Positions 2,464 through 40,586 of a stretch of DNA of 64,000 bases are shown here, piece by piece; position 1 is the first letter of the stretch; each line of letters opens with the position of its first letter. The notes under the pieces are model-generated. The model was not told the origin of the DNA. It did no database searches and saw only the letters and a list, made by a program, of their open reading frames with translations. The DNA is taken from contig NZ_CP091804.1 of the NCBI RefSeq assembly GCF_022024275.1, positions 682,001-746,000 on the forward strand, in the 5' to 3' direction. Both the position numbers and the translations under genes were made by a program. This DNA is from Sphingopyxis sp. BSN-002. Its GTDB lineage: Bacteria; Pseudomonadota; Alphaproteobacteria; Sphingomonadales; Sphingomonadaceae.

Positions 2464-2496
2464 CCGCCGCGGCCTAGGGTGTCATCAGGGAGAGAG

Positions 2497-23115: not shown

Positions 23116-23221
23116 CGCATCCTCCTCATGTCATTTTGAGAATGAGACTATCCTGCCCCGCGATGCCGGGACATCAGCAAAAATGGGAGCGTGGCGACCA
23201 AGCCTGGCTTCGAGAGAAATT

Positions 23222-23243
23222 TGACAAAAACTATTTTTCGTCA
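23222..23243. promoter_or_regulatory. 22-bp palindromic operator, family 1, site A
   Basis: The half-site TGACaAAAA (from 23222) faces TTTTcGTCA (to 23243) across CTAT. It matches 18 of 22 positions of its own reverse complement. The same arrangement occurs at 29450 and 32334. It lies between the divergent SDR operon and the phosphotransferase gene. A TTGACA at 23221-23226 could serve as a -35 element for the rightward promoter, with a weak CATTTC -10 at a 17-base distance. The TetR protein encoded at 31709-32308 is the likely ligand. Confidence 0.72.
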
Positions 23244-23286
23244 CATTTCTTTCCGGGACCGCATCATGGCGGCACGGGAGAGATGG

Positions 23287-24408
23287 ATGGCCGACGATAG
23301 CGCACTTGCTGCAAGCCGGGCGATTACGGGAGCGACGCAGGGCGGGGAAGACCGGAATGTCGCCGAACGGCTCAGGGCCTTTCTGAACCGGCAGGCGTCG
23401 CTCGACGGAAAGGTCGGTGCGATCCGGATCGACGCGGGCCGGCGTTCGGCCGGCGCGTCGAGCGGTACGATCCTTTTCGATGCCGACATCGCTGGCGACG
23501 GCGAAGCACCCCGGCGGCTCGTCTTCCGTTACGATCTTGGCGGTGCATTCTTCAGCCAATATTCGCTGCCGCCCCAATTCTCGATCATGCAGGGCCTCCA
23601 CGCGCGCGGGCTTCCGGTTCCCGAGGCGCTCTGGCTCGACGCCGAGGGCGCGGTGAACGGCAAGCCCGGATTGTTCATGGAACGGATCGAGGGGATAGCG
23701 CCGAGCACCATGCCGTTCAACGAAGGCCCCTATATGGCCGCGGACGCCGCGGGCCGGCACGCGATGCTGCTAGAGGCGGCGCGGACGCTCGCACTGATGC
23801 ACGCGACCTCCCCCGACGGTCTCGCCGACGGGCATTTCGCGCAGCGCGGCGGCGATGGTCATTATCTTGATCGCGAGATCGGCTGGACGCTGATCGAGCT
23901 GCGGCGGACGATCCCGCCCGCCGCGCCGGGCGCAAAGGCGGATTTCTATCGCAACATTCGCGAAACGCTGGAGACGGTCGCCGACTGGCTGACAGCGCAC
24001 GCGCCGCGCCACCGCGCACCCGAGCTCGCGCATGGCGACGCGAACATATCGAACTTCATGTATGGCCACGACGGTAAGGTCGTCGCCCTGCTCGACTGGG
24101 AACTGACGCATCATGGCGTCGGCGAAGCCGATCTCGCCTATCAGATCGCCGGAATCGCGCATTTCGCGCTGCTCGCGCCCCCCGTCGACGGCATTCCGAC
24201 CCCCGACGAGATGATCGCGGCCTATACGCAGGCGCGCGGCAAGCTCGACGACTGGGAGTTCGCACAAGTGCTCGGCGAATGGCGCCTAGCCGTCTTCGCC
24301 TCGATGGGAATGAGCCGCCTGCCGCCCGAACTCGAAGACGTCGAGCGCACCTATTGGACCGCCTCGCGCAAGCGGCTCGCGGCGCTGGTTCCGGGGATCG
24401 ACGGATGA
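23287..24408 (+). CDS. Aminoglycoside-phosphotransferase-fold kinase (APH family)
   Basis: A 373-residue phosphotransferase with the APH/choline-kinase fold. The Brenner motif is HGDANISN (His249, Asp251, Asn256), and the metal-binding Asp270 is in ALLDWELTHHG. The ATP-binding N-lobe spans residues about 50-120. The start at 23287 is preferred over an in-frame ATG at 23266 because GGGAG sits six bases before it. Many members of this family near acyl-CoA dehydrogenases (ACAD10/11-like) phosphorylate hydroxyacyl-CoA or alcohol substrates before elimination. That role is an inference here. It is coupled by ATGA to the AttH-like gene. Confidence 0.9.
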   Translation: MADDSALAASRAITGATQGGEDRNVAERLRAFLNRQASLDGKVGAIRIDAGRRSAGASSGTILFDADIAGDGEAPRRLVFRYDLGGAFFSQYSLPPQFSIMQGLHARGLPVPEALWLDAEGAVNGKPGLFMERIEGIAPSTMPFNEGPYMAADAAGRHAMLLEAARTLALMHATSPDGLADGHFAQRGGDGHYLDREIGWTLIELRRTIPPAAPGAKADFYRNIRETLETVADWLTAHAPRHRAPELAHGDANISNFMYGHDGKVVALLDWELTHHGVGEADLAYQIAGIAHFALLAPPVDGIPTPDEMIAAYTQARGKLDDWEFAQVLGEWRLAVFASMGMSRLPPELEDVERTYWTASRKRLAALVPGIDG

Positions 24409-25415
24409 TCCCCGCCAAGGATATCGTCATCCTGCCGGTCGGGGACGAGTGGCCGCATGCCCCCGAAACCGACGCGCATTGGCAGGAAAGCGTCGTGCTC
24501 TGTTTTCAGGACATCGAACAGGGATTGGGCGGTTTCATCCGGATCGGGCACCATCCGAACCTCGGCACCGGCAATTGCACCTTCGGCGTCGTGGCGCCGG
24601 GCATCGGCTACAACCGCTCGCGGATCGACGTGCCGATGCGCGAGGGCGACCGCTTCACGAACGGCTTCGCAATCGACGGCTTCCTGACCGCGACCTTCGA
24701 CAGCGCGACCAATCGCTGGGTCGCCGAGGACGGCGACTGCGCGCTCGACCTGCACGTCGAAAACCTGCACCCCCACTATGACGCCTGGGCTCTCTCGGGC
24801 CTGACCGGCGGCTTTCGCGAGAAGTTCGCGGCGATGCATACCGAGGTTGCGGGGCGCGTGCGCGGAACGATGCGGATCGGCGACCGGACATGGGCGGTCG
24901 ACGGCTTCGGCCACCGCGACCATAGCTGGGGGGTGCGCAAGCATGACGATCCCGAGGCGGCGCTCGCGACCTTCTTCTGGCTCGTCGGCTCGTTCGGTCC
25001 CGAGCTCATTTTCAGCATGAGCGAGTCGATCACCTTTTCGGGCAAGCGCAACCGCACCGGCTTCGTGATCCGCGACGGCGAGCTCGCCCGGCCGATCACG
25101 CAGGATGCGCGCTTCGGCGTGACGCTCGACGGCATGACGATGCGCGATGCGCGCGTGACCTTCGACGCCGGCGCGCTTGGCGCCCACACGGTCGAACTCG
25201 AAGGCCTGGGCAATGTCCTCCTCGGCATGGGTGGGCGCTATCTCGAGGTCGGCATGCCGGCACGCGGGCACTGGAACGGCCGCACCGGCGGAGTTCACCT
25301 CAGCACGATGTTCAACGCGCGCGGAGGAACCGGCCAGCCGCCGATGCTGTTCGGCACCTCACCCGCCAACGGACTTTACCGCACGCAGGCCTTTCAGGAC
25401 GTGCGAAGACCCTAG
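24405..25415 (+). CDS. AttH/CrtC-like lipocalin-fold protein (DUF7064/7065 type)
   Basis: A 336-residue protein resembling AttH and hydroxyneurosporene-synthase-like proteins (two calycin-like beta barrels). Diagnostic pieces are ESVVLCFQD near the N-terminus, GNCTFGVVAP, and the central GFGHRDHSWGVR, the invariant region of this family. Members are associated with isoprenoid, carotenoid or sterol modification and may hydrate double bonds or bind lipids. No signal peptide is seen. It shares an operon with the upstream kinase (ATGA overlap) and ends in a 4-base overlap with the convergent EthD gene. Confidence 0.8.
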   Translation: MIPAKDIVILPVGDEWPHAPETDAHWQESVVLCFQDIEQGLGGFIRIGHHPNLGTGNCTFGVVAPGIGYNRSRIDVPMREGDRFTNGFAIDGFLTATFDSATNRWVAEDGDCALDLHVENLHPHYDAWALSGLTGGFREKFAAMHTEVAGRVRGTMRIGDRTWAVDGFGHRDHSWGVRKHDDPEAALATFFWLVGSFGPELIFSMSESITFSGKRNRTGFVIRDGELARPITQDARFGVTLDGMTMRDARVTFDAGALGAHTVELEGLGNVLLGMGGRYLEVGMPARGHWNGRTGGVHLSTMFNARGGTGQPPMLFGTSPANGLYRTQAFQDVRRP

Positions 25416-25783
25416 TCGCCGACGATCGTGTGCGAACGGGCGAAGAAGATCGGCGAGCGCGCAAGGTCGATGAAACGCTGCTCGTCCTCGAACAGCTCGC
25501 GATTGGCATCGCGCCGCGCCGGATCGTTGCCGCCGCCGAGCAGGTCGGCCTCGCTGTTCCAGCCGAGTTCGGCGACACCATCGAAGGGCTGATCGGCCAG
25601 CCGCCCCTTGAGCAGCGCCCCGAGCACAGGATCGTCGAGCCGGTGATGCTGACGGTAGAGCGCGAGCCCGATCGTCGGCGCATGGCGCGCGACCAGCGGC
25701 GCGTGCGTTTCCAGCCAATAAGTCTGGAACTCGTCAAGACCGAGCGACGGCAGCCGGTGAAGGCAGAAGAGCATCCGGATCAT
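25412..25783 (-). CDS. EthD-domain protein
   Basis: A 123-residue ferredoxin-like-fold protein of the EthD family. The start IRMLFCLHRLPSLGLDEFQTYWLETHAPLV, seen in pieces as LFCLHR and YWLETHAPLV, is the characteristic EthD segment. EthD proteins accompany cytochrome P450 systems (for instance in ethyl tert-butyl ether degradation) and may be accessory or dehydratase-like enzymes. It starts nine bases after the stop of a P450 gene, matching that association. Confidence 0.88.
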   Translation of the reverse strand: MIRMLFCLHRLPSLGLDEFQTYWLETHAPLVARHAPTIGLALYRQHHRLDDPVLGALLKGRLADQPFDGVAELGWNSEADLLGGGNDPARRDANRELFEDEQRFIDLARSPIFFARSHTIVGD

Positions 25784-25792
25784 GGGGCGACC

Positions 25793-27046
25793 CTATCGCG
25801 TCTTGTAGGCGATCGGCAAACGCTTCAGCCCGCTGACGAAGTTCGAGGCGACCCATGCCGGATCGCCTGCGAGTTCGATCGCATCGATCCGCGCGAGCAA
25901 CTCCTCGAAAAAGATGCGGATTTCCATCTTGGCCAGATGCTGGCCGAGGCAGAGGTGCGGGCCATAGCCGAAACCGAGGTGCCGGTTCGGCGGCCGCGAC
26001 AGGTCGAAACGGAACGGGTCGGTAAAGGCGTCGGCGTCGCGATTGGCCGAGGGATAGCACATCATCAGATGGTCCCCTGCCCGGATCGTCTTTCCGCGCA
26101 GGTCGTAATCCTCGACCGCGGTGCGGAAGAAATGCTTCACCGGGGTGACCCAGCGCACCATCTCGTCGACGCCGCCCGCGGCAAGGATCGCGGGATCGGC
26201 ACGCAGTCGCTCCATCTCGGCCGGGTTCTGCAGCAACGCGAGCAGCCCGCCCGCGATCGTCGAACTGGTCGTGTCATGCCCCGCGGTCGCGATGATGATG
26301 TAATAGGACATCAGCTCGAGCGTGCCGATCGGTTCTCCGTCGACCTCTGCAGTCGACAGCAGCGTTGCGATATCGTCCGACGGATCGCGGCGCCGCGCCT
26401 CGGTCAGCTCGGCGAAATAGTCGGTAAAACCCTTGATCGTCGTCGCCAGATCGGGCTTCGGCCCCTTGCGGATATCGGGATCGTCGGGGCCGAAAATATC
26501 TCGCGTCAGCACGAGCATCCGCGCCTCGTCCTCGGCCGGGACGCCAAGGATGCGCATGATGACGCGGAGCGGGTACCAGACCGCGACGTCGTCGACGAAT
26601 TCGCAGGCGCCGCCGCGCTCGACCATCTGACCGACGAAATGCCGCGCAAGCGCACGCAGATCCTCTTCGATCGCCTTCAGCCGCCCCGGCATGAACCACG
26701 CCTGCGTCAGCTTGCGGTGCGCCATGTGATCGCGGCCGTCCATATGGACGATGTCGCGCAGCATCAGCGCGCTGCCGCCGGTGAGCTTGCGCACCTGCTC
26801 CTCGACCGAGACCGGCCGAAGCATCATTCGCGGCGCGTTCAGGAATTGCGCGGCGTTCCGCTCCACGTCCTGAATGTCCGCGAACCGGGTGACGCTCCAG
26901 AAGGGACGATAATCCGCGGGCTCGGTCCAGTGGACCGGATCCTCCTCCCGCAGCCGGGCAAAGAGCCGGTCATAGGCGTCCGGATCGGCGTAGGTCGCGG
27001 GTGCGACGATCGCGTCGTCGTCGATAGGCGGCGCGATCGTGGCCAT
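25793..27046 (-). CDS. Cytochrome P450, second copy
   Basis: A 417-residue soluble P450. The oxygen-activating helix is IATAGHDTTSSTIAGG, the ExxR equivalent is EMVRWVTPVKH, and the heme loop FGYGPHLCLGQHLA puts the thiolate at Cys366. It starts MATIAPPIDDDAIV; the ATG shares one base with the TonB receptor stop, so translation is coupled. It is only distantly similar to the P450 at 6498 by inspection. With an outer-membrane receptor upstream and EthD downstream, it likely performs an early hydroxylation of the imported compound. Redox partners are absent from the window. Confidence 0.95.
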   Translation of the reverse strand: MATIAPPIDDDAIVAPATYADPDAYDRLFARLREEDPVHWTEPADYRPFWSVTRFADIQDVERNAAQFLNAPRMMLRPVSVEEQVRKLTGGSALMLRDIVHMDGRDHMAHRKLTQAWFMPGRLKAIEEDLRALARHFVGQMVERGGACEFVDDVAVWYPLRVIMRILGVPAEDEARMLVLTRDIFGPDDPDIRKGPKPDLATTIKGFTDYFAELTEARRRDPSDDIATLLSTAEVDGEPIGTLELMSYYIIIATAGHDTTSSTIAGGLLALLQNPAEMERLRADPAILAAGGVDEMVRWVTPVKHFFRTAVEDYDLRGKTIRAGDHLMMCYPSANRDADAFTDPFRFDLSRPPNRHLGFGYGPHLCLGQHLAKMEIRIFFEELLARIDAIELAGDPAWVASNFVSGLKRLPIAYKTR

Positions 27047-29367
27047 CAGAAGTTGAACCCGACGCGCACGCCATAGGTTGCCGGCGGCGCCGCACGCGCA
27101 TTGCGGACAAGGCCGCTGATCGGCAGGCCGCTGTCGAAATATTTCTCGTCGGTGATGTTCGCCGCGAACAGCGACACCAGCCAGCGATCGTCGGGCGCGG
27201 TATAGGTCAGGCTGGCGTCGACAAGCTGCATGCTCCGCGCGGTCGCGCCGCCCGTGCCGGTCAGATTCTCGGCATCGAAATAATAGCCGTCGTTGTGCGA
27301 CGCATCGACCGACAGCTTCAGTTCGCCGTCGCCGACCGGATATTTGACGTCGGCGCCGATCGACAGCACGAACTTCGGAGCGCCGGCGAGCCGGTTGCCC
27401 TTGATGAAGAGCACCCCTGCCCCGCCCGCCGATTGCACGTCGCGGTCGTAGCTGGTGTCGAGCACCAGCCCGTTCGAGCGCAGCGTGAACATCGGCGACA
27501 CCTGCCACAGCAGGTCATATTGCGCGCCGGTGATCTTGGCACCGGTGCCGTTGACGAGGATGTTCGATCCGCTCGCCGAGTCCGTATAGGCGATATGGAT
27601 ATTGCCATAGTCGTAGTGGAAGGCGCCGAGATTGAGCCGCGCGTCGGGCGACAGGCGGATTTTCGCGCCGCCCTCGAACGAGGTGATCGTCTCGGGCGTC
27701 ACGCCGGGGCTGAGAAGGTTGGTGTTCGAGAGCGTCGCGCCCTTGAACCCGGTCGAAACCCCGGCGTAGAGCAGCAGGTCGCCGGTGTCATACTGGATAC
27801 GGCCGGTATAGGTGAACTTCGATCCCTTGAGCACCTGCCGCCCCTGGTTCGGGGTACCGAACACGTTGCGCGGGTCGGTCAGCGAGATGAAGTCGTTGCT
27901 GGTATATTTCTCGTCGGTGTAGCGGCCGCCGGCGGTGACGCTGAGCCGCTCGGTGATCGGCACGGTGATCTGGCCGAAGCCGGCGACCGATTTGTTCTGC
28001 CAGCGGTTGTCGGCGGTCAGCGCCGACAGCGGCGGCAGGTCGCCGGTGAGCAGGACGTCGCCGGCGGCGTCGAGATAGACGACACCCGCGATCCACTGAA
28101 CGGGCGAATCCACCGATGCGATCTGGAACTCCTGCTGCCAGGTCCGCGACGGGAAATCGCCGGTGAAGCCGACCGATCCGCCCTGGAAACCGACCGGATA
28201 GCTTGTCGGGTCAGCGAACAACACTTCGGTCGCCGACAGCGATTGCGCCGTCTGATATGCGGTCAGCGAACTCAGCTCGACCGAACCGAGGTCGAGCGTG
28301 GCCTTCGCCGAATAGGTCTCCGTATTGAGCTGCACGAACGATCCCGCCGGTCCCGGACGCAGGACACCGCGCGTCGAACCATTTGCTTCATTGTCATAGG
28401 TCGCGCCGTGCTTGGTGCTGAAGCGCAGGTTTGCAGCCGCGGTCATCGCATCGCCGGCGGAAACGCCGAAGCTTTGCAGCAGCCCGGCATAATAGAGCTG
28501 CGACCCGTTGAGCCCGGTGCCGCCGACGTCGATGTCCAGCCCGACCGCCTGATAGCCCTGCCCCGACCGATCGTCGGATTCGAAATGCTGCGCACGCAGC
28601 ACCAGATTGAACTGTTCGGACGGCTTGAAGACGAGGACCGCCCCGATCGACTTGGAATCGCGGTCGTAGAAGTCGTCGTTCGTGGCCCCGACGCCCGGCG
28701 CATTCAGATTCCGGATATAGCCGTCGCGCTTGCGGATCGACCCGTTGACCGAGAAAGCGAACATGTCGCCAAGCCCGCCCGAAATGATCCCCGACGCTTC
28801 GCGATTGTCGTAATTGCCGTAACCGGCGCGGAAGCGGCCCGAGATCGGATCGCCCGGTCGCGGCGTCTTCGTCGTCACGACGATCGCACCGCCGGTCGCG
28901 TTGCGGCCGTAAAGCGCACCCTGCGGCCCTTCGAGGACCTGGACCTGTTCGACATTGTCGAGGTCGAAGGCCGCGCTCGTCAGCGTCGAGATATAGACCC
29001 CGTCGACATAGGTCGCGACGCTGGCCGCCTGCCCCGCCCCGGTGACGGTCGAGCCGACGCCGCGGATGAAGGGCGTGACGTTGCTCGCCTGATTCTGGAC
29101 GGTCAGCGACGGCGTCAGCTTCGGCAGGTCTTGCAGGGTCGAGACGTTGCGCGCCTCGAGCACTTCGGGCTCGACGGCGGTCACCACAACGGGAACTTTC
29201 TGGAGGTTCTCGGACCGGCGCTGCGCGGTCACGACGATATCGACCAAGCCCCCGCTGTCGGTCGTCGTACCGCCTTCCGCGGCCGGCGCCGGAGACTCCT
29301 CCGCCCAAGCCGGCGAAACGCTCACAGTGGCGATGGCGACACTGGCCATCAGAACAGCCTTACGCAT
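27046..29367 (-). CDS. TonB-dependent outer-membrane receptor
   Basis: A 773-residue TonB-dependent transporter. A signal peptide of about 22 residues ends ...SPAWA before EES. The TonB-box/plug start is GLVDIVVTAQRRSENLQKVPV, followed by plug motifs NQASNVTPFIRGVGS and LEGPQGALYGRNATGGAI. The beta-barrel ends with the aromatic terminal strand VRVGFNF. This type, without a siderophore-synthesis neighbourhood, is common in sphingomonads for uptake of organic substrates. The start at 29367 is supported by GGAGGGAGACG. It leads the TonB receptor-P450-EthD operon, and its promoter region carries both operator families found in the window. Confidence 0.95.
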   Translation of the reverse strand: MRKAVLMASVAIATVSVSPAWAEESPAPAAEGGTTTDSGGLVDIVVTAQRRSENLQKVPVVVTAVEPEVLEARNVSTLQDLPKLTPSLTVQNQASNVTPFIRGVGSTVTGAGQAASVATYVDGVYISTLTSAAFDLDNVEQVQVLEGPQGALYGRNATGGAIVVTTKTPRPGDPISGRFRAGYGNYDNREASGIISGGLGDMFAFSVNGSIRKRDGYIRNLNAPGVGATNDDFYDRDSKSIGAVLVFKPSEQFNLVLRAQHFESDDRSGQGYQAVGLDIDVGGTGLNGSQLYYAGLLQSFGVSAGDAMTAAANLRFSTKHGATYDNEANGSTRGVLRPGPAGSFVQLNTETYSAKATLDLGSVELSSLTAYQTAQSLSATEVLFADPTSYPVGFQGGSVGFTGDFPSRTWQQEFQIASVDSPVQWIAGVVYLDAAGDVLLTGDLPPLSALTADNRWQNKSVAGFGQITVPITERLSVTAGGRYTDEKYTSNDFISLTDPRNVFGTPNQGRQVLKGSKFTYTGRIQYDTGDLLLYAGVSTGFKGATLSNTNLLSPGVTPETITSFEGGAKIRLSPDARLNLGAFHYDYGNIHIAYTDSASGSNILVNGTGAKITGAQYDLLWQVSPMFTLRSNGLVLDTSYDRDVQSAGGAGVLFIKGNRLAGAPKFVLSIGADVKYPVGDGELKLSVDASHNDGYYFDAENLTGTGGATARSMQLVDASLTYTAPDDRWLVSLFAANITDEKYFDSGLPISGLVRNARAAPPATYGVRVGFNF

Positions 29368-29449
29368 CTTCGTCTCCCTCCAGATCGCGAAGCTTTTCGC
29401 TTCATCTTTCTGCTTGCCAGTCCGCGCCACAGTAGCGCATATCCCGACA

Positions 29450-29471
29450 CGACAAAAATAGATATTCGTCG
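29450..29471. promoter_or_regulatory. 22-bp palindromic operator, family 1, site C
   Basis: CGACaAAAA from 29450 faces TATTcGTCG to 29471 across TAGA. It is the third match to the GACRAAAA-N4-TWTTYGTC pattern. It lies in the divergent gap between the TonB receptor and the molybdopterin oxidoreductase. For the rightward promoter, a TATTTT hexamer at 29472-29477 would be a -10 placed just after the palindrome, the same geometry as at the other two sites. Confidence 0.65.
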
Positions 29472-29494
29472 TATTTTATTCTGTCAACCGGGAT

Positions 29495-29512
29495 TTTAAA
29501 TGCTCATTTAAA
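29495..29512. promoter_or_regulatory. 18-bp palindromic operator, family 2, single site
   Basis: TTTAAATG, CT, CATTTAAA form a perfect 8-2-8 palindrome. Near-identical copies occur as a tandem pair at 39095 and 39119. It lies 24 bases downstream of the family 1 palindrome and 31 bases before the molybdopterin oxidoreductase ATG, so bound protein would block that promoter or its early transcript region. Confidence 0.7.
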
Positions 29513-29542
29513 CGGGTGATTCCACGGGTTTTCGGCGAATGG

Positions 29543-31708
29543 ATGGAGAGTAAATTGGCTAGCGAAGCCCCGATTCGAACCGAGACGACAAGCTTTTGTC
29601 GGCTGTGCGAGGCCTTTTGCGGCACCGTGATCGCGATCGAGGATGGCCGACCGGTCAAACTCTCCCCCGACCGCGACAATCCGCACACGCAGGGGCATAT
29701 CTGCGTCAAGGGTGCGGCGATCGTCGACGTCGCGAACGATCCCGACCGCGTGCTGCGACCGTTGAAACGCATCGGCGGTCCCGGCGAATTCGCCGAGGTA
29801 TCGTGGGACGAAGCCCTCGACGATATCACCGCGCGACTGAAGGCGATCATCGACACCGACGGGCCGGAGGCGGTCGCGACCTATTTCGGCAATCCCGGCG
29901 CCTTTTCGACCGACACTTTCATGTCGAGCCAGTGGTTCCTGCAACGGATCGGGAGCACCAAATTCTATGCGGCGGGATCGCAGGACAGTACCTCGCGCCA
30001 CCTCGCGAGCTGGATCCTCTATGGCGTCGCCTTTCGCAACGCGATTCCCGACCTGCCGCATTGCGATTTCCTGATCATAACGGGCGCCAACCCTTTGGTA
30101 TCGCACGGTGGCCTGCTCACCGCGCCGCGGATGCGACACGACCTCGACGCCATTGCCGAACGCGGGCGCGTGATCGTGATCGACCCGCGCCGGACCGAAA
30201 CCGCGAAGCGTTACGAGCATGTCGCGATCCAGCCCGATGCCGACGCGTGGCTTCACGCGGCAATGCTCAAGGTGATGATCGGCGCGGAGGTCGTCGACGA
30301 AGCCTTCCTCGCCGCGCATTGCACCGGCTGGGACGATCTGCGCGATGCCGTAATGCAGGTCGATCTCGACGAGGCGACAGCGGCCACCGGCGTCCCGCGC
30401 GGCACCATCGAACAACTTGCACTCGACTTCGCCGCCGCGCCGCGTGCCGCGATGTACGGCCGCGTCGGCCTGTGCCGTGGCCGCTTCTCGACGATTGCCA
30501 ACCTGCTGCTCGACGCGATCAACATTGCCGGCGGCAAGTTCGGCAAGCCGGGCGGGTCGACCTTCGGCGCCTTTCCGCTCGCCGAAGGCGCCGAACCGCT
30601 GTCGGGCTATGGCGAGCATCGCACGCGCATCGGCGACCTGCCGGTCGTTGCGGGCCTGATGCCGGCCGCTGCGCTGCCCGACGACATATTGGAACCCGGC
30701 GACGGCCGGGTCCGCGCCATGATGGTCATCGCCGGCAATCCCGTCCTGTCGGCGCCGGGGGGCGAGCGGCTCGAAAGGGCACTCGAGTCGCTCGCCCTCC
30801 TCTTCTCGGTCGATCTCTATGTGACCGAGACGAACCGCTTCGCGCACTATATCCTGCCCGCCGCCACCTTCCTCGAAAAGGACGATATTCCGCTGATCGG
30901 GCTGTCGCACATGGTGCGGCCCTATATCCAGTACGCCCGCGCCGCGGTGCCGCCGATGGGCGAGGCACGCGAGGAAAAGGCGATTTTCGACGATCTCGTC
31001 GCGCGCATGGGGCTCGGCTCGATCGCGCCGACCCCGGGCCTGCGCTGGCTGGAGCGGCAGGGCATGTCGATCACGCCGCTGACCCTCGTCGAAATCGCCC
31101 TTCGATACGGGCCGCTCGGCAAACAGCGCGGCGACGATGCGCTGAGCTTCGCGAAACTGGCGGAGATGCCGCACGGCACGATGCTCGACCTGCCGCTCAC
31201 CTATGATGGCTGGGCCGGACATATCGCCACCGAGGATCGCAAGATCCGCCTCTGGCACCCGATCGTCGCCGACGAATTCGCACGCTTCGCGGCGCAGCAG
31301 TCCCCGACCGGCAGCGATGGAAGGCTGAAGCTGTTCAGCCAGCGCAAACTCAAGTCGATGAACAGCTGGATGCACAATCCCGAAAAGCTGGCGCGATCGC
31401 AGGAGCCCGCACTGCTCGTCCACCCCGCCGACGCAGCGCGATACGGCCTCAGCGATGGCGGCCAGGCCAGCGTAGCGAACGAACATGGCGCCGTCGAAGT
31501 CGCGGTCGAAGTGACCGAAGATGTGGTCGAGGGTGCGGTCTGCTATCCGCACGGATGGGGTCACAATGGCGGCTGGCGCCATGCCAACACCCTGCCCGGC
31601 GCGAACATCAACCTGTTGCTCGGGCTCGGGCCGGAAGCGGTCGAGCTCGTCTCGGGAACGACGTTCATCGACGGCATCCCGGTAACGGTCACCCCGATCG
31701 CCGCCTGA
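29543..31708 (+). CDS. Molybdopterin (bis-MGD) oxidoreductase, second copy
   Basis: A 721-residue DMSO-reductase-superfamily protein, a distant relative of the one at 2497. Cysteines 19, 22, 26 and 54 (CRLCEAFC, then HICVKGA) bind the N-terminal 4Fe-4S cluster. Cofactor-contacting pieces are YFGNPGAFS, AAGSQDSTSRHLAS, ITGANPLVSHGG and VIAGNPVLSAPGG, and the C-terminal domain has VCYPHGWGHNGGW. No Tat signal is seen, so it is cytoplasmic. The start is uncertain: ATG 29543 has a weak ribosome site, while an in-frame TTG at 29555 follows GGAGAG. It converges end to end with the TetR gene. Confidence 0.92.
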   Translation: MESKLASEAPIRTETTSFCRLCEAFCGTVIAIEDGRPVKLSPDRDNPHTQGHICVKGAAIVDVANDPDRVLRPLKRIGGPGEFAEVSWDEALDDITARLKAIIDTDGPEAVATYFGNPGAFSTDTFMSSQWFLQRIGSTKFYAAGSQDSTSRHLASWILYGVAFRNAIPDLPHCDFLIITGANPLVSHGGLLTAPRMRHDLDAIAERGRVIVIDPRRTETAKRYEHVAIQPDADAWLHAAMLKVMIGAEVVDEAFLAAHCTGWDDLRDAVMQVDLDEATAATGVPRGTIEQLALDFAAAPRAAMYGRVGLCRGRFSTIANLLLDAINIAGGKFGKPGGSTFGAFPLAEGAEPLSGYGEHRTRIGDLPVVAGLMPAAALPDDILEPGDGRVRAMMVIAGNPVLSAPGGERLERALESLALLFSVDLYVTETNRFAHYILPAATFLEKDDIPLIGLSHMVRPYIQYARAAVPPMGEAREEKAIFDDLVARMGLGSIAPTPGLRWLERQGMSITPLTLVEIALRYGPLGKQRGDDALSFAKLAEMPHGTMLDLPLTYDGWAGHIATEDRKIRLWHPIVADEFARFAAQQSPTGSDGRLKLFSQRKLKSMNSWMHNPEKLARSQEPALLVHPADAARYGLSDGGQASVANEHGAVEVAVEVTEDVVEGAVCYPHGWGHNGGWRHANTLPGANINLLLGLGPEAVELVSGTTFIDGIPVTVTPIAA

Positions 31709-32308
31709 TCAGCGCGCCATCACCGTCGGCGCCAGAAAGTCGCGGACCAGCGCATCCATTCCGGCACGATCGTCGAGATCCTCGGCGGGACGCTGGAGCA
31801 GCGCGCGATAGACGAAGCTCAGCCACCATTCGATCCGCTCGACCGAAATATCGCCCCGCACCCGTCCCGTCGCGGCGATCCGCTCGATCACCGGCGCCCA
31901 ATAGTCGTGCATCATCCGCTCGATGACCTGCGAATGTTCGGCGAGTTCGTTGACATAACCCATTGAGCCTTCCTCGAAGAGGCCCTCGAAGATCGGCATG
32001 GCGCGAGCGGCATCGACGAGTGCGAGCACCGCCGCCGATAGCAGCGCCTCGCCCTCCAGGTCATCGGGAATATTTTCCTTCGCGCGCTCATTCACCAGCG
32101 CGCCTTCGCGGAGCAGTACTGCGGTCGCGAGCTGCTGCTTGTTCGGGAAATAATTATAGATCGTCTGGCGCGTGATCCCCGAGCCCTTCGCGACGGCTTC
32201 CATCCGCAACCGTTTGTACCCGACCTTCGCGATCACCTGATTCGCAGCGTCCAATATGCGGGCCTGCGTCCGGCGCGCGACGTCGGTTTCAAGTTCATTG
32301 TCCATCAT
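31709..32308 (-). CDS. TetR-family transcriptional regulator (TetR-1)
   Basis: A 199-residue TetR-type repressor. The N-terminal helix-turn-helix runs from ARILDAANQVIAKVGYKRLRMEAVAKGSGITRQTIYNYFPNKQQL, visible as the TRQTIYNYFPNKQQL recognition helix region. The C-terminal ligand-binding part is about 130 residues. It is divergent from the amidohydrolase gene; the gap of 84 bases holds a family 1 palindrome 26 bases from its own start. Autoregulation and control of the neighbouring genes are therefore likely. The ligand is unknown, presumably a pathway intermediate. Confidence 0.93.
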   Translation of the reverse strand: MMDNELETDVARRTQARILDAANQVIAKVGYKRLRMEAVAKGSGITRQTIYNYFPNKQQLATAVLLREGALVNERAKENIPDDLEGEALLSAAVLALVDAARAMPIFEGLFEEGSMGYVNELAEHSQVIERMMHDYWAPVIERIAATGRVRGDISVERIEWWLSFVYRALLQRPAEDLDDRAGMDALVRDFLAPTVMAR

Positions 32309-32333
32309 ATAGCCCGCAGAAAATCCCTAAATT

Positions 32334-32355
32334 TGACGAAAATGAATTTTTGTCG
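32334..32355. promoter_or_regulatory. 22-bp palindromic operator, family 1, site B
   Basis: TGACgAAAA from 32334 faces TTTTtGTCG to 32355 across TGAA. It lies between the divergent TetR-1 and amidohydrolase genes, the usual place for a TetR self-operator. TTGACG at 32333-32338 can act as the -35 for the amidohydrolase with CATTCT as -10 at a 17-base spacing. The flanking bases after the palindrome (CATTCTTCCC) resemble those at site A (CATTTCTTTCC). Confidence 0.75.
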
Positions 32356-32392
32356 CATTCTTCCCGCATAACGACATACCGGGAGATTTGTC

Positions 32393-34135
32393 ATGTACGG
32401 ATTCGACCTCGTCATCAAGAACGGGACGATCATCGACGGCACGCGCTTTCCGCGCTTCAGGTCCGACATCGGGATCAGGGACGGGAAAATTGCACGGATC
32501 GGGCACATCGCCGATCCCGGCAGCGCGCGCGTGGTCGATGCGGACGGACTGATCGTCGCTCCCGGCCATATCGACACCCACACCCATTATGACGCGCAGA
32601 TTTTCTGGGATCCGACGTGCTCGAACGCCGGCGAGAACGGTATCACCACCGTCGTGACCGGCAATTGCGGCTTCGGCTTCGCTCCCGTCCATGTAAGGGA
32701 TCGCGAGCGCGCGATGCTCATGATGGAAACGACCGAACAGGTTCCCGCGATCCAGATGCAGACCGCCCTCCCCTGGTCGTGGGAAACCTTCCCCGAGCTC
32801 GTCGAGGCGATGCGGCGGACGCCCAAGGCGGTGAACCTCACCATGTTCCTGCCGCTCAACGCGGTGATGTTCTATGTGATGGGCGAGGATGCGAAGCACC
32901 GCCGCCCGACCGCGGCCGAGATCAATACGATCAAGGGGCTGATCCACGAGGCGATGGACGCCGGCGCGTGCGGCCTGTCGCTTAGCTTCATGGGGCACGA
33001 GAACAACCATGTCGACGTCGACGGATCGCCGATGCCGACCGACATCATGTATCCCGACGATGCCGTCGCGATGGCGAGCGCGCTGAAGGACCGGCAGGAA
33101 GGGATCATCCAGGTCATCTCGCAGATCGGCCCGGTCGGCGACCGGAGCATCAGCGAAAAGCTGGCGCGCGAGACCGGCCGCCCGATCCTGCACAACGTGT
33201 TCTCGGTCAGCGAATACACCCCCGACCTCCACCGCCAGAGCATGGCGTGGCTGGACGCGATGAACGAAGAGGACGGCGTCGAGATGTACGCCGCGACGGT
33301 GATCTGCCGCGCGTGGAACGAGACCGAACTCTTCAACTCGCCCGGCTGCTCGCTCGACGCGCTCGACGTCTATCGCGAGCTGACCTTCTGCAAGGATCCG
33401 GCCGACAAGCGCGCCAAGCTGCTCGATCCCGAATTCCGCCGCCGTTTCAACGAGAGCTATGACCCAGTGATGTTCGAGGCGACCGCGGGCGGGCTCGCCG
33501 ACTATACGGTGATCGGAATGGGCGAAGGCTCGAACGACGCCAAGGGCTATCTCGGCAAGACATTGGGCGAGATCGCCGCGGCCGAAGGCAAGACCGAGGT
33601 TGACGCCTTCATCGACACCGCACTCGAAAGCGACCTGCGGATCGAACTCAAGACTCCCGGCATCGCGATCGACCCCGCAAAGGTCGCCGACCTGCTGTCG
33701 AACGGGCGCGTCCTCGCGGGGGCCTCGGACGGCGGCGCGCACACCAAGAATTTCAGCGGAGGCCAGTGGACCACCGACCTGATCCTGTGGCTGGTACGCG
33801 ACAATGACTTCCTCTCGCTCGAGGAAATGCACTACCGTCTTTCCTATCAGCCCGCGCGCGCGATGGGCATCAAGGATCGCGGCGCGCTGCTCGAAGGCAT
33901 GGCGGCCGACATTCTCGTCTATGATCTGGCCGAGCTGTATTTCGACCAGGATCGGTTCGACGTCGTCCATGACCAGCCCGGCGGCGACTGGCGGCGCAAG
34001 GCGCGCGCCGGCGGATATCGCCAGATCTTCGTGAACGGCGAGCAGACGTTCGAGCGCGACCGCCCGGTCGGCGCGACGCCCGGCGTCTATCTGGGCGATG
34101 GCGTGCCCCGCCCGCAGATCGCCCGCGCCGCCTGA
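32393..34135 (+). CDS. N-acyl-D-amino-acid deacylase-like amidohydrolase
   Basis: A 580-residue metal-dependent amidohydrolase of the D-aminoacylase family. The metal-binding HxH lies in HIDTHTHYDAQIFWD, and NGITTVVTGNCGFGFAP follows, as in this family. Later LSFMGHENNHVD, VISQIG, GASDGGAHTKNF (metal Asp region) and the terminal QPGGDWRRKARAGGYRQIFVNG are consistent. It would hydrolyse an amide, lactam or cyclic ester bond. In this catabolic setting a ring-opening hydrolase is an alternative to true deacylation. The start has a GGGAG site. It is followed 8 bases later by an SDR gene. Confidence 0.9.
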   Translation: MYGFDLVIKNGTIIDGTRFPRFRSDIGIRDGKIARIGHIADPGSARVVDADGLIVAPGHIDTHTHYDAQIFWDPTCSNAGENGITTVVTGNCGFGFAPVHVRDRERAMLMMETTEQVPAIQMQTALPWSWETFPELVEAMRRTPKAVNLTMFLPLNAVMFYVMGEDAKHRRPTAAEINTIKGLIHEAMDAGACGLSLSFMGHENNHVDVDGSPMPTDIMYPDDAVAMASALKDRQEGIIQVISQIGPVGDRSISEKLARETGRPILHNVFSVSEYTPDLHRQSMAWLDAMNEEDGVEMYAATVICRAWNETELFNSPGCSLDALDVYRELTFCKDPADKRAKLLDPEFRRRFNESYDPVMFEATAGGLADYTVIGMGEGSNDAKGYLGKTLGEIAAAEGKTEVDAFIDTALESDLRIELKTPGIAIDPAKVADLLSNGRVLAGASDGGAHTKNFSGGQWTTDLILWLVRDNDFLSLEEMHYRLSYQPARAMGIKDRGALLEGMAADILVYDLAELYFDQDRFDVVHDQPGGDWRRKARAGGYRQIFVNGEQTFERDRPVGATPGVYLGDGVPRPQIARAA

Positions 34136-34143
34136 TCGCACCC

Positions 34144-34929
34144 ATGCTCCAGGACCGGGTCATTCTCGTCGTCGGCGGGTCGACGGGCATCGGACGCGCC
34201 ACCGCCATCGCCTGCGGGCAGGCCGGTGCGACCGTCGTCGTCGGCGCCCGCGACCGCGCGAAAGCGGAAGAGGTCGCCGGCGAAGCTGCACGCGCCGGGG
34301 CGCCCCGGACGCTGGGGCTGCCGGTCGACGTGCGCACGTCGGAAGCGGTCGATGCATTCGTCTCGACGGCCGCCGACACCTTCGGTCGTCTCGACGGCGC
34401 GGTGAACAACGCAGGTATCGAGGGCCGCATGGCACCGATGCATGATCTCACCGACGTCGACTATGCGGACATCATGGATGTGAACGCGCGCGGCATCTTC
34501 TTTGCGATGCGTGCCGAGATCGCCGCGATGGGCGCCACGGGGGGCGCGATCGTCAATGTCGGGTCGGTCGGCTCGTTCACCGGGCTCGTCGGCCAGTCGG
34601 TCTATGCCGCGTCCAAACATGCCGTCTGGGCGCTTACCCGTTCAGCGGCGGTCGAAAACGCCGGGCGCGGGATCCGCATCAACATGATCGCCCCCGCCGG
34701 CACCGAGACCCCGATGCTTCACCGCGTGCTGCAGGGCAATGAGGAGGCGATGCGCGGCGCGGCAAGAATGCATCCGATCGGCCGGTTCGGCACGCCCGAA
34801 GAGAGCGCCGCAGCGATCGTCTGGCTGCTCTCCGACGCCGCTTCCTTCGTCTGCGGCCAGTCGATCGGAGTCGACGGCGGCTATTCGGCGACGCTCGGCT
34901 TCAACCCGCAGGCTGCGCTCGCCGACTAA
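34144..34929 (+). CDS. SDR family oxidoreductase
   Basis: A 261-residue classical SDR. The nucleotide motif is VVGGSTGIGRATA, NNAGIEG follows, the serine/tyrosine/lysine triad is in NVGSVGSFTGLVGQSVYAASKHAV (pieces VGSVGS and YAASKHAV), and the end FVCGQSIGVDGGYSA is typical. All catalytic residues are intact, unlike the SDR at 22351. Its position after the amidohydrolase suggests oxidation of the alcohol released by that enzyme. The last 4 bases overlap the convergent TetR gene. Confidence 0.93.
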   Translation: MLQDRVILVVGGSTGIGRATAIACGQAGATVVVGARDRAKAEEVAGEAARAGAPRTLGLPVDVRTSEAVDAFVSTAADTFGRLDGAVNNAGIEGRMAPMHDLTDVDYADIMDVNARGIFFAMRAEIAAMGATGGAIVNVGSVGSFTGLVGQSVYAASKHAVWALTRSAAVENAGRGIRINMIAPAGTETPMLHRVLQGNEEAMRGAARMHPIGRFGTPEESAAAIVWLLSDAASFVCGQSIGVDGGYSATLGFNPQAALAD

Positions 34930-35546
34930 CGCGCGAGCAGCCCGCCGACGATCAGTTCGCTTACCGTCGTGGCATAGCGTTCGACGAGGTCGTGATCGAG
35001 CGAACCGTCGCCAAGGATCGTGTGCCGCGACTGCACCGACGAGAAAAGATGCGCGCAGGCGCCGTCGATCGCAAAGCTGACCAGGTTGGCGTCGACCGCG
35101 CGAAACTCGCCGCACGCGATGCCGTCGGCTATGATCGCTCGCCGTGCCTCGATCACCGGCCGGACAAAGGTCGCGCCGACCTTTGCCGAGGCTTCGGGCG
35201 ACGCTTCGCGCAGCAGCTTCTGGAGCAGGCGATTGAGATAAGGCCGCTCGAAATAAGCCTCGATCAATCCCTTGATATGGATTTCCATCTTCGCCGTCGG
35301 AGCAATATCCGCGGCTAGCAGGCGTTCAAGATGCCCCGAGGCGCGCCGTGCATCGCCCTCGATGATCGCGATCATCAGCCCTTCGCGGTTGCCGAAATAA
35401 TAGCTGACGAGCGCAACGTTGGTGCCGGCCCGCTCCGAAATGTCGGCGATCGACACCTCGAGCAGCCCGCGCTCAATCATCAGGCTGCGCGCCGCCTCGA
35501 CGATGCGCTGCGCCGTCGCCGGCTGGTCGGTCAGATCCTCGGCCAT
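34926..35546 (-). CDS. TetR-family transcriptional regulator (TetR-2)
   Basis: A 206-residue TetR-type regulator. Its helix-turn-helix is in RIVEAARSLMIERGLLEVSIADISERAG, followed by the recognition region NVALVSYYFGNREGL. The C-terminal part resembles the TetR_C domains that bind acyl-CoA or fatty-acid-like ligands. It starts 10 bases after the CoA-transferase stop and is probably the last gene of the thiolase-fusion / CoA-transferase / TetR-2 operon. The promoter of that operon carries the tandem family 2 palindromes, so autoregulation is likely. Confidence 0.92.
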   Translation of the reverse strand: MAEDLTDQPATAQRIVEAARSLMIERGLLEVSIADISERAGTNVALVSYYFGNREGLMIAIIEGDARRASGHLERLLAADIAPTAKMEIHIKGLIEAYFERPYLNRLLQKLLREASPEASAKVGATFVRPVIEARRAIIADGIACGEFRAVDANLVSFAIDGACAHLFSSVQSRHTILGDGSLDHDLVERYATTVSELIVGGLLAR

Positions 35547-35556
35547 GCTGCCCCCG

Positions 35557-36732
35557 TCATTGCCCCTTCAGCCTCGCGCGGATCCGGTCGGACTGTTCGC
35601 CCAGCCGCGGCGCATGACGCTTGGCTGATTCGAGCGGCTTTGCAAAGCGCACCGGATGCTCCATCGCGAAATAGCCCCCTTCGCTCGGATGCTCCTGCCG
35701 CGAGAAAAAGCCTGTCGCTGCCAGATGCGGGTCGTCCATGATATCGGCGATATCGCGCACCGGCTGCGCAGGTATCTGCGCCGCATGGCATTTCGCGATC
35801 AGTTCGTCCGTGGTAAAAGCCGGGGTCAGCCGGGCCATTTCGCGGTAGAGCAGCGCCAGATTGACCGTCCGCGCCTTGCGGGTCGCGAACCGCTCGTCAT
35901 TCAGAAACCCCGGATTGCCGAGCACCTCGAACATCTTCGGCCAGGCTTCATCGGTATAGGGCACGATACTGACGAAGCCGTCGCGCGTCGGGAAAGGCTG
36001 CCGGTCGGGATCGATCTGGCGGAAATAGCCGACGGGCGCGTTCGGGGGATCGAAGCTCTGTCCGGCGAGATGTTCGAGGAGCATGAAATGGCTGAACGCC
36101 TCGAACATCGCGATCTCTATCTTCTGCCCCTCTCCCGTCCTGAGCTTGTGGATCACGGCGGCGAGCACCGCATAGGCGGCGTGAAGGCCCGCGACCTTGT
36201 CGGCGATCAGCGACGGCAGGTAGCGCGCACGCGGATTGCCGTCGACGCGCGGCAACAAGGTTGCCGTCCCCGTCGCCGCCTGGATCACATCGTCATAGGC
36301 CTGCAGGTCGGCATAGGGGCCGTGCTGCCCGAAGCCCACGCAATGCGCATAGATGATATCGGGATTGATCGCCCGCACCGCGGCATAGTCGAGCCCCAGC
36401 CGCTCGACCGCCTTGCCGCGCACGTTGAGCACGAACACGTCGGCGTCTTCGAGCAGCGCCTTCATGCACGCGAGGTCATCGGGGGTCTTGAGATCGAGCG
36501 CGACCGACTGCTTGCCGCGGTTGATCGCCATGAAGCCGGGACTCATCCCAGGCGTCGCCGCGGCCTTGCCCGACCAGCGGAATGCATCGCCCGCGCCCGG
36601 TGCCTCGACCTTGATCACCTCGGCGCCGAGTTCGGCGAGGATATGCGTGCAATAGGGGCCGAAGACGACGCTCGTCAGATCGACCACCCGGATCCCGTCC
36701 AGCATCGGCCTGCCGTCCATCGCAATCGTCAC
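35557..36732 (-). CDS. CaiB/BaiF family III CoA-transferase
   Basis: A 391-residue family III CoA-transferase, which moves CoA between carboxylates. The N-terminus VVDLTSVVFGPYCTHILAELGAEVIKVE, seen as the pieces GPYCTHILAELGAEVIKVE, is the family signature, and the catalytic aspartate is in QAYDDVIQAATG. The start is uncertain. A GTG at 36732 overlaps the upstream stop (GTGA) and has GGAG six bases before it; ATG at 36744 and ATG at 36720 are alternatives with weaker sites. It likely activates an intermediate acid using CoA from a product thioester. Confidence 0.9.
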   Translation of the reverse strand: MTIAMDGRPMLDGIRVVDLTSVVFGPYCTHILAELGAEVIKVEAPGAGDAFRWSGKAAATPGMSPGFMAINRGKQSVALDLKTPDDLACMKALLEDADVFVLNVRGKAVERLGLDYAAVRAINPDIIYAHCVGFGQHGPYADLQAYDDVIQAATGTATLLPRVDGNPRARYLPSLIADKVAGLHAAYAVLAAVIHKLRTGEGQKIEIAMFEAFSHFMLLEHLAGQSFDPPNAPVGYFRQIDPDRQPFPTRDGFVSIVPYTDEAWPKMFEVLGNPGFLNDERFATRKARTVNLALLYREMARLTPAFTTDELIAKCHAAQIPAQPVRDIADIMDDPHLAATGFFSRQEHPSEGGYFAMEHPVRFAKPLESAKRHAPRLGEQSDRIRARLKGQ

Positions 36733-39071: not shown

Positions 39072-39094
39072 CGCGGCGCCTCTCCTTGACGCAG

Positions 39095-39136
39095 TTTAAA
39101 TGTTCATTTAATCGAGCGTTTAAATGCTCATTTAAT
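39095..39136. promoter_or_regulatory. Tandem 18-bp palindromic operators, family 2
   Basis: Two copies of TTTAAATG-YT-CATTTAAT sit at 39095-39112 (centre TT) and 39119-39136 (centre CT), separated by CGAGCG, giving a 24-base repeat period. A third copy is at 29495. They fill the 96-base divergent gap between the thiolase/hydratase fusion operon and the aldehyde dehydrogenase gene. TetR-2, encoded at the end of the leftward operon, is the best candidate ligand. Confidence 0.75.
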
Positions 39137-39167
39137 CCGAGTCAATCGGATCGCAGGAGAGGCCATC

Positions 39168-40586
39168 ATGAATTTCGAGACCGGATATTCGATGCTCATC
39201 GACGGCGCGCTGGTGACCGGCGACGCACAGATAGAGGTGATCAATCCCGCGAACGGGCAGATATTCGCGGCTGCCCCCGATTGCTCGCCGGAACAACTCG
39301 ATATTGCGGTGGCGGCCGCGCGGCGGGCGTTCAGGGCATGGCGTGCGGTGCCGATCGGCGAGCGGCAGGCCTGTCTGCTGAAAGCCGCGGACATTCTCGA
39401 CGCCAATGCCGAACAGCTTGCGCGGCTTTTCACGCGCGAACAGGGCCGTCCGACCGATGGTGCCCTGTCGGAAATCGGTATCGCGGTGGCGTGGCTCCGC
39501 GCCTATGCGGCGATGACACCGCCCGCGCATGTCATCGATAACGGCGATGGCCAGCGGGTCGAGACGAATTATGTGCCGCTCGGCGCCGTCTGTGCGATTT
39601 CGCCGTGGAATTTCCCGGTCAATCTCTCGATCTGGAAGATCGCCCCCGCTCTCGCCGCCGGCAATACCATCGTGCTCAAGCCTTCGCCCTTCACCCCGCT
39701 CTGCATGCTCAAGATCGGCGAATTGCTGAAAGACGCGTTCCCCGCGGGCGTTCTCAATATCATTTCGGGCGGCGACGCGCTCGGCCCGCTGATGACCGCG
39801 CATCCGGGCTTTGCGAAGATCTCTTTCACCGGATCGACCGCGACCGGCAAGCGCGTGATGGAAAGCGCGGCGAAGGATCTGAAGCGCCTGACGCTCGAGC
39901 TTGGCGGCAACGATGCGGCGATCGTCATGTCCGACGTCGATCTCGACGACGTGGCGCAGAAAATATTCTTCGGCGCCTTTTTCAACAGCGCCCAGATCTG
40001 CGTCGCAACCAAGCGCCTCTACGTCCATGACAGCATTTATGACGGACTGCGCGACCGGCTCGCGGCGATCGCGCAGTCCGTGAAACTCGGTGACGGAAGC
40101 GAACAGGGTACCGTTCTCGGCCCCCTGCAGAACCGGCGCCAGTTCGAGCGGGTATCGGCGCTGATCGAAGACGCAAGGGACGCCGGGCTGACGCTTGTGG
40201 AGGGGCCGGCCGGCCCCGACACGGGGGGCTATTTCATCCCCGTCACGATCATCGACAACCCGCCCGAGGATTCGGCCGTCGTGCAGGAGGAGGCCTTCGG
40301 CCCCGTTCTGCCGATGATGCGCTTTCACGATCTCGACGAAGTCATCGATCGCGCCAACGCCAGCGAATATGGTCTCGCCGGTGCGGTGTGGTCGAAGAAT
40401 GTCGATCAGGCCGTCGCCGTCGCCCGCCGACTTGAAACCGGGACGGTCTGGATCAACCAGAATCTGATGCTCCGGCCCGATACGCCGTTCGCGGGACACA
40501 AGCAAAGCGGGTTCGGCGTGGAGAACGGCATGGACGGCATGCTCGAATATATGGCGCCGCAAAGCATCTACATCGCGGCCGGATAG
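39168..40586 (+). CDS. NAD(P)-dependent aldehyde dehydrogenase
   Basis: A 472-residue aldehyde dehydrogenase superfamily member. The cofactor region is AISPWNFPVNLSIW and ISFTGSTATGKRVM, the general base glutamate is in LTLELGGNDAAIV, and the nucleophile is in FFNSAQICVATKRLY. The pieces QEEAFGPVLPMMRF and LMLRPDTPFAGHKQSGFG mark the C-terminal third. It oxidises an aldehyde to an acid, probably one produced by the P450 or retro-aldol steps. The ATG follows AGGAGAGG. It is divergent from the thiolase fusion across the tandem operators. Confidence 0.95.
   Translation: MNFETGYSMLIDGALVTGDAQIEVINPANGQIFAAAPDCSPEQLDIAVAAARRAFRAWRAVPIGERQACLLKAADILDANAEQLARLFTREQGRPTDGALSEIGIAVAWLRAYAAMTPPAHVIDNGDGQRVETNYVPLGAVCAISPWNFPVNLSIWKIAPALAAGNTIVLKPSPFTPLCMLKIGELLKDAFPAGVLNIISGGDALGPLMTAHPGFAKISFTGSTATGKRVMESAAKDLKRLTLELGGNDAAIVMSDVDLDDVAQKIFFGAFFNSAQICVATKRLYVHDSIYDGLRDRLAAIAQSVKLGDGSEQGTVLGPLQNRRQFERVSALIEDARDAGLTLVEGPAGPDTGGYFIPVTIIDNPPEDSAVVQEEAFGPVLPMMRFHDLDEVIDRANASEYGLAGAVWSKNVDQAVAVARRLETGTVWINQNLMLRPDTPFAGHKQSGFGVENGMDGMLEYMAPQSIYIAAG

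What the first reader, a model, noticed from the sequence alone, without database searches (positions are those of the whole stretch)
23222..32355. A three-site 22-bp palindrome defines a TetR regulon in the catabolic region
Sites at 23222, 29450 and 32334 share GAC-R-AAAA-N4-TWTT-Y-GTC. Each lies in a divergent gap, and at each site the left half overlaps a possible -35 with a -10-like hexamer at 17 bases for the rightward gene (phosphotransferase, molybdopterin oxidoreductase, amidohydrolase). Site B sits between TetR-1 and its divergent neighbour. I infer that TetR-1 controls all three and that the site family marks a coherent, apparently undescribed regulon.
Basis: partly seen in the sequence, partly recalled or inferred. 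Interest (0 to 1): 0.8.

Follow-up and report, generated by a model that had tools for sequence, protein, structure and literature searches.

The report
Two-repressor, two-operator catabolic island
Three matching DNA palindromes in front of breakdown genes are real and conserved; they belong to a compact, shared gene island in Sphingopyxis-type bacteria that is probably switched by two repressor proteins, each with its own DNA address, which is a sound and testable prediction but of an ordinary kind.

Summary
The three 22-bp palindromes (P1: 23222, 29450, 32334) are real. They fit GACRAAAA-N4-TWTTYGTC exactly, against 0.003 expected in the 3.73-Mb genome, and are its only intergenic matches with 0-1 mismatches. 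They recur at the same three promoters in eight other copies of a ~17.4-kb island (23218-40583) in Sphingopyxis and Novosphingobium, one on a megaplasmid. All 27 sites keep the GAC...GTC core and a rightward ATT. Among 80 congeneric genomes, all 6 with TetR-1 have 2-3 such sites in the island; none of the 74 without it has two or more. TetR-1 (31709-32308) is therefore the likely repressor.

A second palindrome, P2 (TTTAAATG-N2-CATTTAAA), lies 43 bp from site B and as a tandem pair at 39095-39136, and nowhere else in the genome. It tracks a second regulator, TetR-2 (34926-35546). All four divergent regions of the island carry P1 and/or P2; region B carries both. Best reading: two TetR repressors with separate operators and one doubly controlled uptake/oxidation region. 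No binding was tested.

The parts
23222..23243 (.). P1 operator, site A (TGACAAAAACTATTTTTCGTCA)
   Evidence: Exact pattern match. Conserved in front of the phosphotransferase in 9 islands; in 8 aligned gaps 12/20 invariant columns against 14/137 in the rest of the gap, P=2e-6.
23221..23249 (+). Promoter-like pair TTGACA-N17-CATTTC overlapping site A
   Evidence: Both hexamer positions conserved in 9 of 9 orthologues, as CATTTC or CATTTT. Not called by the consensus scan.
23287..24408 (+). APH-family kinase (Rv3168-like); start inferred from the conserved ATG
   Evidence: Pfam PF01636 E=9e-23; PDB 3ats E=2e-19; start from the alignment.
24405..25415 (+). DUF7065/DUF7064 protein, Rv3169-like
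   Evidence: Pfam; NCBIfam Rv3169_fam at 48 bits, below its cutoff of 150; start inferred from the EMRT-2 annotation.
25412..25783 (-). EthD-domain protein
   Evidence: PF07110 E=1e-12.
25793..27046 (-). Cytochrome P450, CYP108-like
   Evidence: Best PDB match P450terp 1cpt E=2.5e-107, then 3tkt and P450tol; start inferred from EMRT-2.
27046..29367 (-). TonB-dependent receptor
   Evidence: PF00593 and PF07715.
29450..29471 (.). P1 operator, site B (CGACAAAAATAGATATTCGTCG)
   Evidence: 18/20 columns invariant in 8 islands. On the minus strand an invariant TTGACA (about 29482-29487) stands 17 bp before TATCTA inside the operator.
29495..29512 (.). P2 operator, single copy (TTTAAATGCTCATTTAAA), 43 bp centre to centre from site B
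   Evidence: Perfect match; degenerate in L014 and L016.
29555..31708 (+). Molybdopterin oxidoreductase (formate-dehydrogenase-like); TTG start inferred (ATG in L014, L015)
   Evidence: PF00384, PF01568 and PF04879; start from the alignment.
31709..32308 (-). TetR-1, proposed repressor that binds P1
   Evidence: PF00440 E=5e-15; helix-turn-helix stretch TRQTIYNYFPNK invariant in orthologues; one of only two TetR_N matches in the window.
32334..32355 (.). P1 operator, site C (TGACGAAAATGAATTTTTGTCG) between TetR-1 and the amidohydrolase
   Evidence: Present in all 9 islands.
32393..34135 (+). Amidohydrolase, D-aminoacylase type
   Evidence: PF07969 E=1e-18.
34144..34929 (+). Short-chain dehydrogenase
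   Evidence: PF13561 E=1e-60.
34926..35546 (-). TetR-2, proposed repressor that binds P2
   Evidence: PF00440 and PF14514; PDB 2qtq E=1e-31. Abuts P2 directly in L014, L015 and G169.
35557..36744 (-). CaiB-type CoA-transferase
   Evidence: PF02515 E=2e-104.
36729..39071 (-). Thiolase-like / enoyl-CoA hydratase fusion
   Evidence: PF00378, PF18313 and PF22691.
39095..39112 (.). P2 operator, tandem copy 1 (TTTAAATGTTCATTTAAT)
   Evidence: pitch to copy 2 is 22-24 bp in 9 islands.
39119..39136 (.). P2 operator, tandem copy 2 (TTTAAATGCTCATTTAAT)
39168..40586 (+). Aldehyde dehydrogenase
   Evidence: PF00171 E=2.5e-155.

Best explanation
The palindromes are operators of a self-contained, horizontally shared catabolic island (window 23218-40583) with two TetR-family repressors. 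TetR-1 binds P1 (YGACRAAAA-N4-TTTTYGTCR) and, without inducer, represses its own gene together with amidohydrolase-SDR (site C), the kinase/Rv3169-like pair (site A), and both arms of region B: TonB receptor-P450-EthD leftward and molybdopterin oxidoreductase rightward. P1 overlaps the -35/-10 region at each promoter, so repression would be by blocking polymerase. TetR-2 binds P2 (TTTAAATG-N2-CATTTAAA), represses thiolase/hydratase-CoA-transferase-TetR-2 and the aldehyde dehydrogenase from a tandem pair, and adds a second lock to region B. The likely inducers are the terpene-like or alkyl-aromatic substrate, or a CoA or acid intermediate, one for each repressor. Shown: the sites, their uniqueness, conservation, promoter register and co-inheritance with the regulators. 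Inferred: binding, repression, inducers and substrate.
For: P1: three exact sites, 0.003 expected per genome. The same promoters carry P1 in 9 islands, 27 of 27 sites keeping the core and ATT flank. In 80 congeneric genomes, 6 of 6 TetR-1 carriers have 2-3 sites in the island and 0 of 74 others have two or more; Fisher P=3e-9, ignoring shared ancestry and physical linkage. TetR-1 faces a gap that holds P1 only. P2: unique to the island at up to 3 mismatches. In L014, L015 and G169, which lack the CoA-transferase and thiolase fusion at this place, TetR-2 directly abuts the tandem P2, divergent from the aldehyde dehydrogenase. G201 keeps TetR-2 (68%), its neighbours and tandem P2 with no TetR-1 and no P1 there. 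The island holds the only two TetR genes of the window. The P450 is CYP108-like.
Against: No binding, expression or inducer data. Co-inheritance is partly physical linkage, because sites and regulators lie in one island. In gap C the site is no better conserved than the rest of the gap (P=0.21). The -10-like hexamers are weak, and the consensus promoter scan finds nothing above chance. P2 at region B is degenerate in L014 and L016, so the second lock may not be universal. TetR-1 could act as an activator, although overlap with -35/-10 speaks against it.
Confidence: 0.8

Rival explanations
1. P1 is bound by another DNA-binding protein encoded elsewhere in the genome, and TetR-1 only happens to sit beside it.
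For: The genome has 26 TetR_N matches, and no binding was tested.
Against: P1 pairs appear only in genomes that carry TetR-1. A regulator of the wider genome would be expected to have other targets, and none exist with 0-1 mismatches outside the island except a chance-like hit in coding sequence. P1 lies in the TetR-1 divergent gap in all 9 islands.
Confidence: 0.1
2. The regulators are swapped or shared: TetR-2 binds P1, or both proteins bind both palindromes.
For: P1 and P2 lie 43 bp apart in gap B, in 8 of 9 islands at exactly that distance.
Against: Gap C beside TetR-1 holds only P1; the gap beside TetR-2 in L014, L015 and G169 holds only P2; G201 has TetR-2 with P2 but neither TetR-1 nor P1. 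The two palindromes share no half-site.
Confidence: 0.06
3. The palindromes are not operators but conserved promoter or DNA-structure elements, carried along with an island of recent common origin.
For: The island is 81-93% identical across copies, and P1 contains promoter-like hexamers.
Against: At site A the sequence upstream is unalignable and the rest of the gap is mostly variable while the arms stay fixed (P=2e-6). Three non-homologous promoters share the same palindrome. The central N4 varies while the arms do not.
Confidence: 0.04

Closest known systems
TetR-family autoregulated repressors with divergent targets (general kind)
   Same: TetR_N domain, all-helical model, palindrome in the divergent gap next to the regulator gene and overlapping a promoter-like pair.
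   Different: Two regulators and two unrelated palindromes interleaved in one island, with one region holding both.
Mycobacterium tuberculosis Rv3167c / Rv3168-Rv3169 (PMC5340868)
   Same: A TetR repressor with a palindrome controls an APH-like kinase and an Rv3169-family partner. The window kinase matches PDB 3ats, which I recall to be Rv3168; the neighbour matches Rv3169_fam below its cutoff.
   Different: In Mycobacterium the TetR lies directly beside the pair. Here it is ~7 kb away and would reach the pair through site A. The Rv3167c palindrome was not compared.
KstR (cholesterol catabolism TetR repressor)
   Same: Nearest solved relatives of the TetR-1 N-terminal part (E=2e-8, residues 3-79).
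   Different: NCBIfam KstR score 41 against a cutoff of 280. P1 does not resemble the KstR motif as I recall it.
AlkX (Dietzia TetR repressor implicated in alkane degradation)
   Same: Top Foldseek match to the TetR-1 model (E=6e-6); also linked to hydrocarbon oxidation.
   Different: 22% identity, TM-score 0.56; many TetR proteins score about as well.
CYP108 oxidations (P450terp; CYP108j1 repressed by NarL in Rhodococcus P14, PMC7037279)
   Same: The island P450 is CYP108-like.
   Different: No TetR control of a CYP108 gene was found in the searches made.

Membership tests
TetR family (TetR-1) | TetR_N helix-turn-helix domain | tested here: met
   PF00440 55.4 bits, cutoff 24.
TetR family (TetR-1) | All-helical fold with ligand-binding C-terminal domain | tested here: met
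   AlphaFold2 model pLDDT 84, 11 helices; Foldseek matches are TetR-type proteins. The ligand pocket was not examined.
TetR family (TetR-1) | Palindromic operator near its own gene | tested here: met
   P1 in the TetR-1/amidohydrolase gap in 9 of 9 islands.
TetR family (TetR-1) | Binds the operator and is released by a ligand | not testable with these tools
   Needs gel shift and ligand assays.
TetR family (TetR-2) | TetR_N domain and TetR-type C-terminal domain | tested here: met
   PF00440 47 bits and PF14514 89.9 bits.
TetR family (TetR-2) | Palindromic operator next to its own transcription unit | tested here: met
   Tandem P2 upstream of its operon; directly adjacent in L014, L015 and G169.
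KstR | Score above the curated KstR equivalog cutoff | tested here: not met
   41 bits against 280.
Rv3167c-type locus | TetR gene divergent from and adjacent to the Rv3168-Rv3169 pair | tested here: not met
   TetR-1 is ~7 kb away; only site A is adjacent.
Rv3167c-type locus | Palindrome in front of an APH-Rv3169-like pair | tested here: met
   Site A.

The most novel reading that the evidence does not exclude
Region B is a conserved two-input gate. TetR-1 on P1 and TetR-2 on P2, held 43 bp apart (about four helical turns), must both be released before the TonB receptor, P450 and molybdopterin oxidoreductase are fully made, so the island reads two different chemical signals, such as substrate and a CoA intermediate, before committing to uptake and oxidation.
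Probability: 0.4. Interest if true: 0.55.

Novelty: new member of a known kind. Interest (0 to 1): 0.42.

Why it matters
It gives an uncharacterised, mobile catabolic island of sphingomonads a complete predicted control circuit: two regulators, two operator sequences and all six transcription units. It supplies two apparently undescribed, mutually distinct TetR operators that could be used to find the inducing compound, and so the substrate of the pathway, and could serve as orthogonal switches.

Tried and rejected
The near-match at 214020 was inspected and set aside: it lies inside an ORF that looks like a phage capsid gene. A consensus promoter scan found nothing above chance. No tRNA gene lies in the window, so no island attachment site is suggested. 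Paper searches for the P2 motif string, for CYP108 with TetR in Novosphingobium, and for TetR regulons of Sphingomonadales showed no description of either operator among the listed results; most of those papers were not read in full and the library holds only open-licence papers. A fold search for TetR-1 gave only generic TetR matches, from a model built on seven close relatives. P2 was sought in G198, which has TetR-2 at 63%: no match with up to 3 mismatches. By eye the gap holds two drifted TTAAA-type repeats about 21 bp apart beside a TTGAC box, left undecided.

Full report
What was checked. The three sites exist exactly as described: 23223-23242 GACAAAAACTATTTTTCGTC, 29451-29470 GACAAAAATAGATATTCGTC, 32335-32354 GACGAAAATGAATTTTTGTC, each extended to 22 bp by Y...R or T...A/G. 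With 3 mismatches allowed, the window gives 8 strand matches against 0.68 in shuffles. Under a first-order Markov model, exact matches are expected 0.003 times in the 3.73-Mb genome. In the genome the three are the only exact matches. One more with a single mismatch (214020) lies inside an ORF that I read as a phage capsid gene. Looser matches approach the reversed-pattern control (17 places against 6 at 3 mismatches).

Gene context. The genes around the sites were read from ORFs and Pfam/NCBIfam. Site A lies between an SDR (-) and an APH-like kinase (+), site B between a TonB receptor (-) and a molybdopterin oxidoreductase (+), and site C between TetR-1 (31709-32308, -) and an amidohydrolase (+). 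The finding's statement that site B sits beside TetR-1 is therefore wrong; site C does.

Conservation. Orthologues of TetR-1 (79-98% identity) were found in Novosphingobium (SCN 66-18, MD-1), in Sphingopyxis (two MAGs, strain HIX, S. panaciterrae) and in one further congeneric genome, G169. They sit in the same gene island, whose DNA similarity starts at window 23218, next to site A, and ends near 40583 after the aldehyde dehydrogenase. A further copy lies on megaplasmid pABRDHK22 of Novosphingobium sp. EMRT-2. The island is rare (6 of 80 genomes of the genus). Its DNA is closer to some Novosphingobium copies (89%) than to S. panaciterrae (81-83%), which suggests horizontal transfer (inference). 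The genus name Sphingopyxis is inferred from locus L024, taken from a congeneric genome and k-mer identical to the S. panaciterrae locus L016.

The palindromes stay at the same three promoters in all nine islands. In two draft genomes site A lies outside the first fetched stretch and was retrieved separately. In gap A the arms are fixed while the sequence upstream is unalignable: 12/20 invariant columns against 14/137, P=2e-6. Gap B gives P=1e-4. Gap C gives P=0.21 because the whole short gap is conserved.

Co-occurrence. With a relaxed palindrome pattern, all 6 TetR-1 genomes of the genus have 2-3 hits in the island and none of the other 74 has two or more distinct places. The Fisher value is 3e-9, but it ignores shared ancestry and linkage and should be read as descriptive.

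The second half of the circuit. The gap between the thiolase/hydratase fusion (-) and the aldehyde dehydrogenase (+) holds a tandem of another palindrome, P2, TTTAAATG-N2-CATTTAAA (39095-39112, 39119-39136). A perfect single copy lies at 29495-29512 in gap B. With up to 3 mismatches P2 occurs nowhere else in the genome. It is present in the nine islands, though degenerate at gap B in L014 and L016. The distance between P1 and P2 centres in gap B is 43 bp in eight islands and 42 in one; the tandem pitch is 22-24 bp.

Which protein reads which palindrome. The window has two TetR genes of the 26 TetR_N matches in the genome, both in the island. TetR-1 faces a gap with P1 only. In L014, L015 and G169 the CoA-transferase and thiolase fusion are missing at this place and TetR-2 directly faces the aldehyde dehydrogenase across the tandem P2, with no P1. 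G201 has TetR-2 (68%), the CoA-transferase, the thiolase fusion, the aldehyde dehydrogenase and tandem P2, but no TetR-1 and no P1 beside them. This assigns P2 to TetR-2 and leaves P1 to TetR-1.

Mechanism. P1 overlaps TTGACA-N17-CATTTC at A and TTGACG-N17-CATTCT at C. At B it overlaps ACGACA-N17-TATTTT rightward, and leftward it covers the -10 position of an invariant TTGACA (minus strand). P2 copies in the 39-kb gap also stand just inside TTGAC boxes. Such placement fits blocking of polymerase. All four divergent regions of the island, and so all six transcription units plus TetR-1 itself, carry P1 and/or P2. Only region B carries both, which is consistent with a two-signal gate over uptake and first oxidation. 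This last step is inference.

Function of the island. The P450 is CYP108-like (P450terp E=2.5e-107; 3tkt, which I recall as CYP108D1; P450tol). With the TonB receptor, EthD protein, aldehyde dehydrogenase, CoA-transferase and thiolase/hydratase this suggests uptake, oxidation and CoA-dependent breakdown of a terpene-like or alkyl-aromatic compound; the substrate is not determined. The kinase resembles PDB 3ats and the kinase part of ACAD11, and its neighbour weakly matches the Rv3169 family. That recalls Rv3167c-Rv3168-Rv3169 of M. tuberculosis, where a TetR protein binds a palindrome and represses the pair (PMC5340868).

Verdict. The system is a new member of a known kind: autoregulated TetR repressors of a catabolic island, notable for two interleaved operators and a doubly controlled region.

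Noticed in passing
29495-29512; 39095-39136: Second palindrome family TTTAAATG-N2-CATTTAAA, absent elsewhere in the genome, linked to TetR-2. Taken up in the main report.
   Followed up: yes
23287-25415: APH-like kinase and DUF7065/7064 (Rv3169-like) pair; the kinase also resembles the ACAD11 kinase domain, which hints at phosphorylation of a hydroxyacyl intermediate.
   Followed up: partly
L028 8398-11822 and 25138-25918: The EMRT-2 megaplasmid copy has three extra genes (amidohydrolase, dipeptidase, ornithine cyclodeaminase) between the Rv3169-like gene and EthD, and the gene right of the thiolase fusion is annotated energy transducer TonB instead of aldehyde dehydrogenase, although tandem P2 is kept at 25138-25179.
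   Followed up: no
L029 3709-3726 and 18250-18290: Genome G201 has P2-like sites at the ALDH/thiolase gap and also before an MFS transporter gene, with a second, more distant TetR-2 relative (31%) nearby.
   Followed up: partly
2293-4623: A second molybdopterin oxidoreductase, about 30% identical to the island's, lies upstream in the window outside the island.
   Followed up: no
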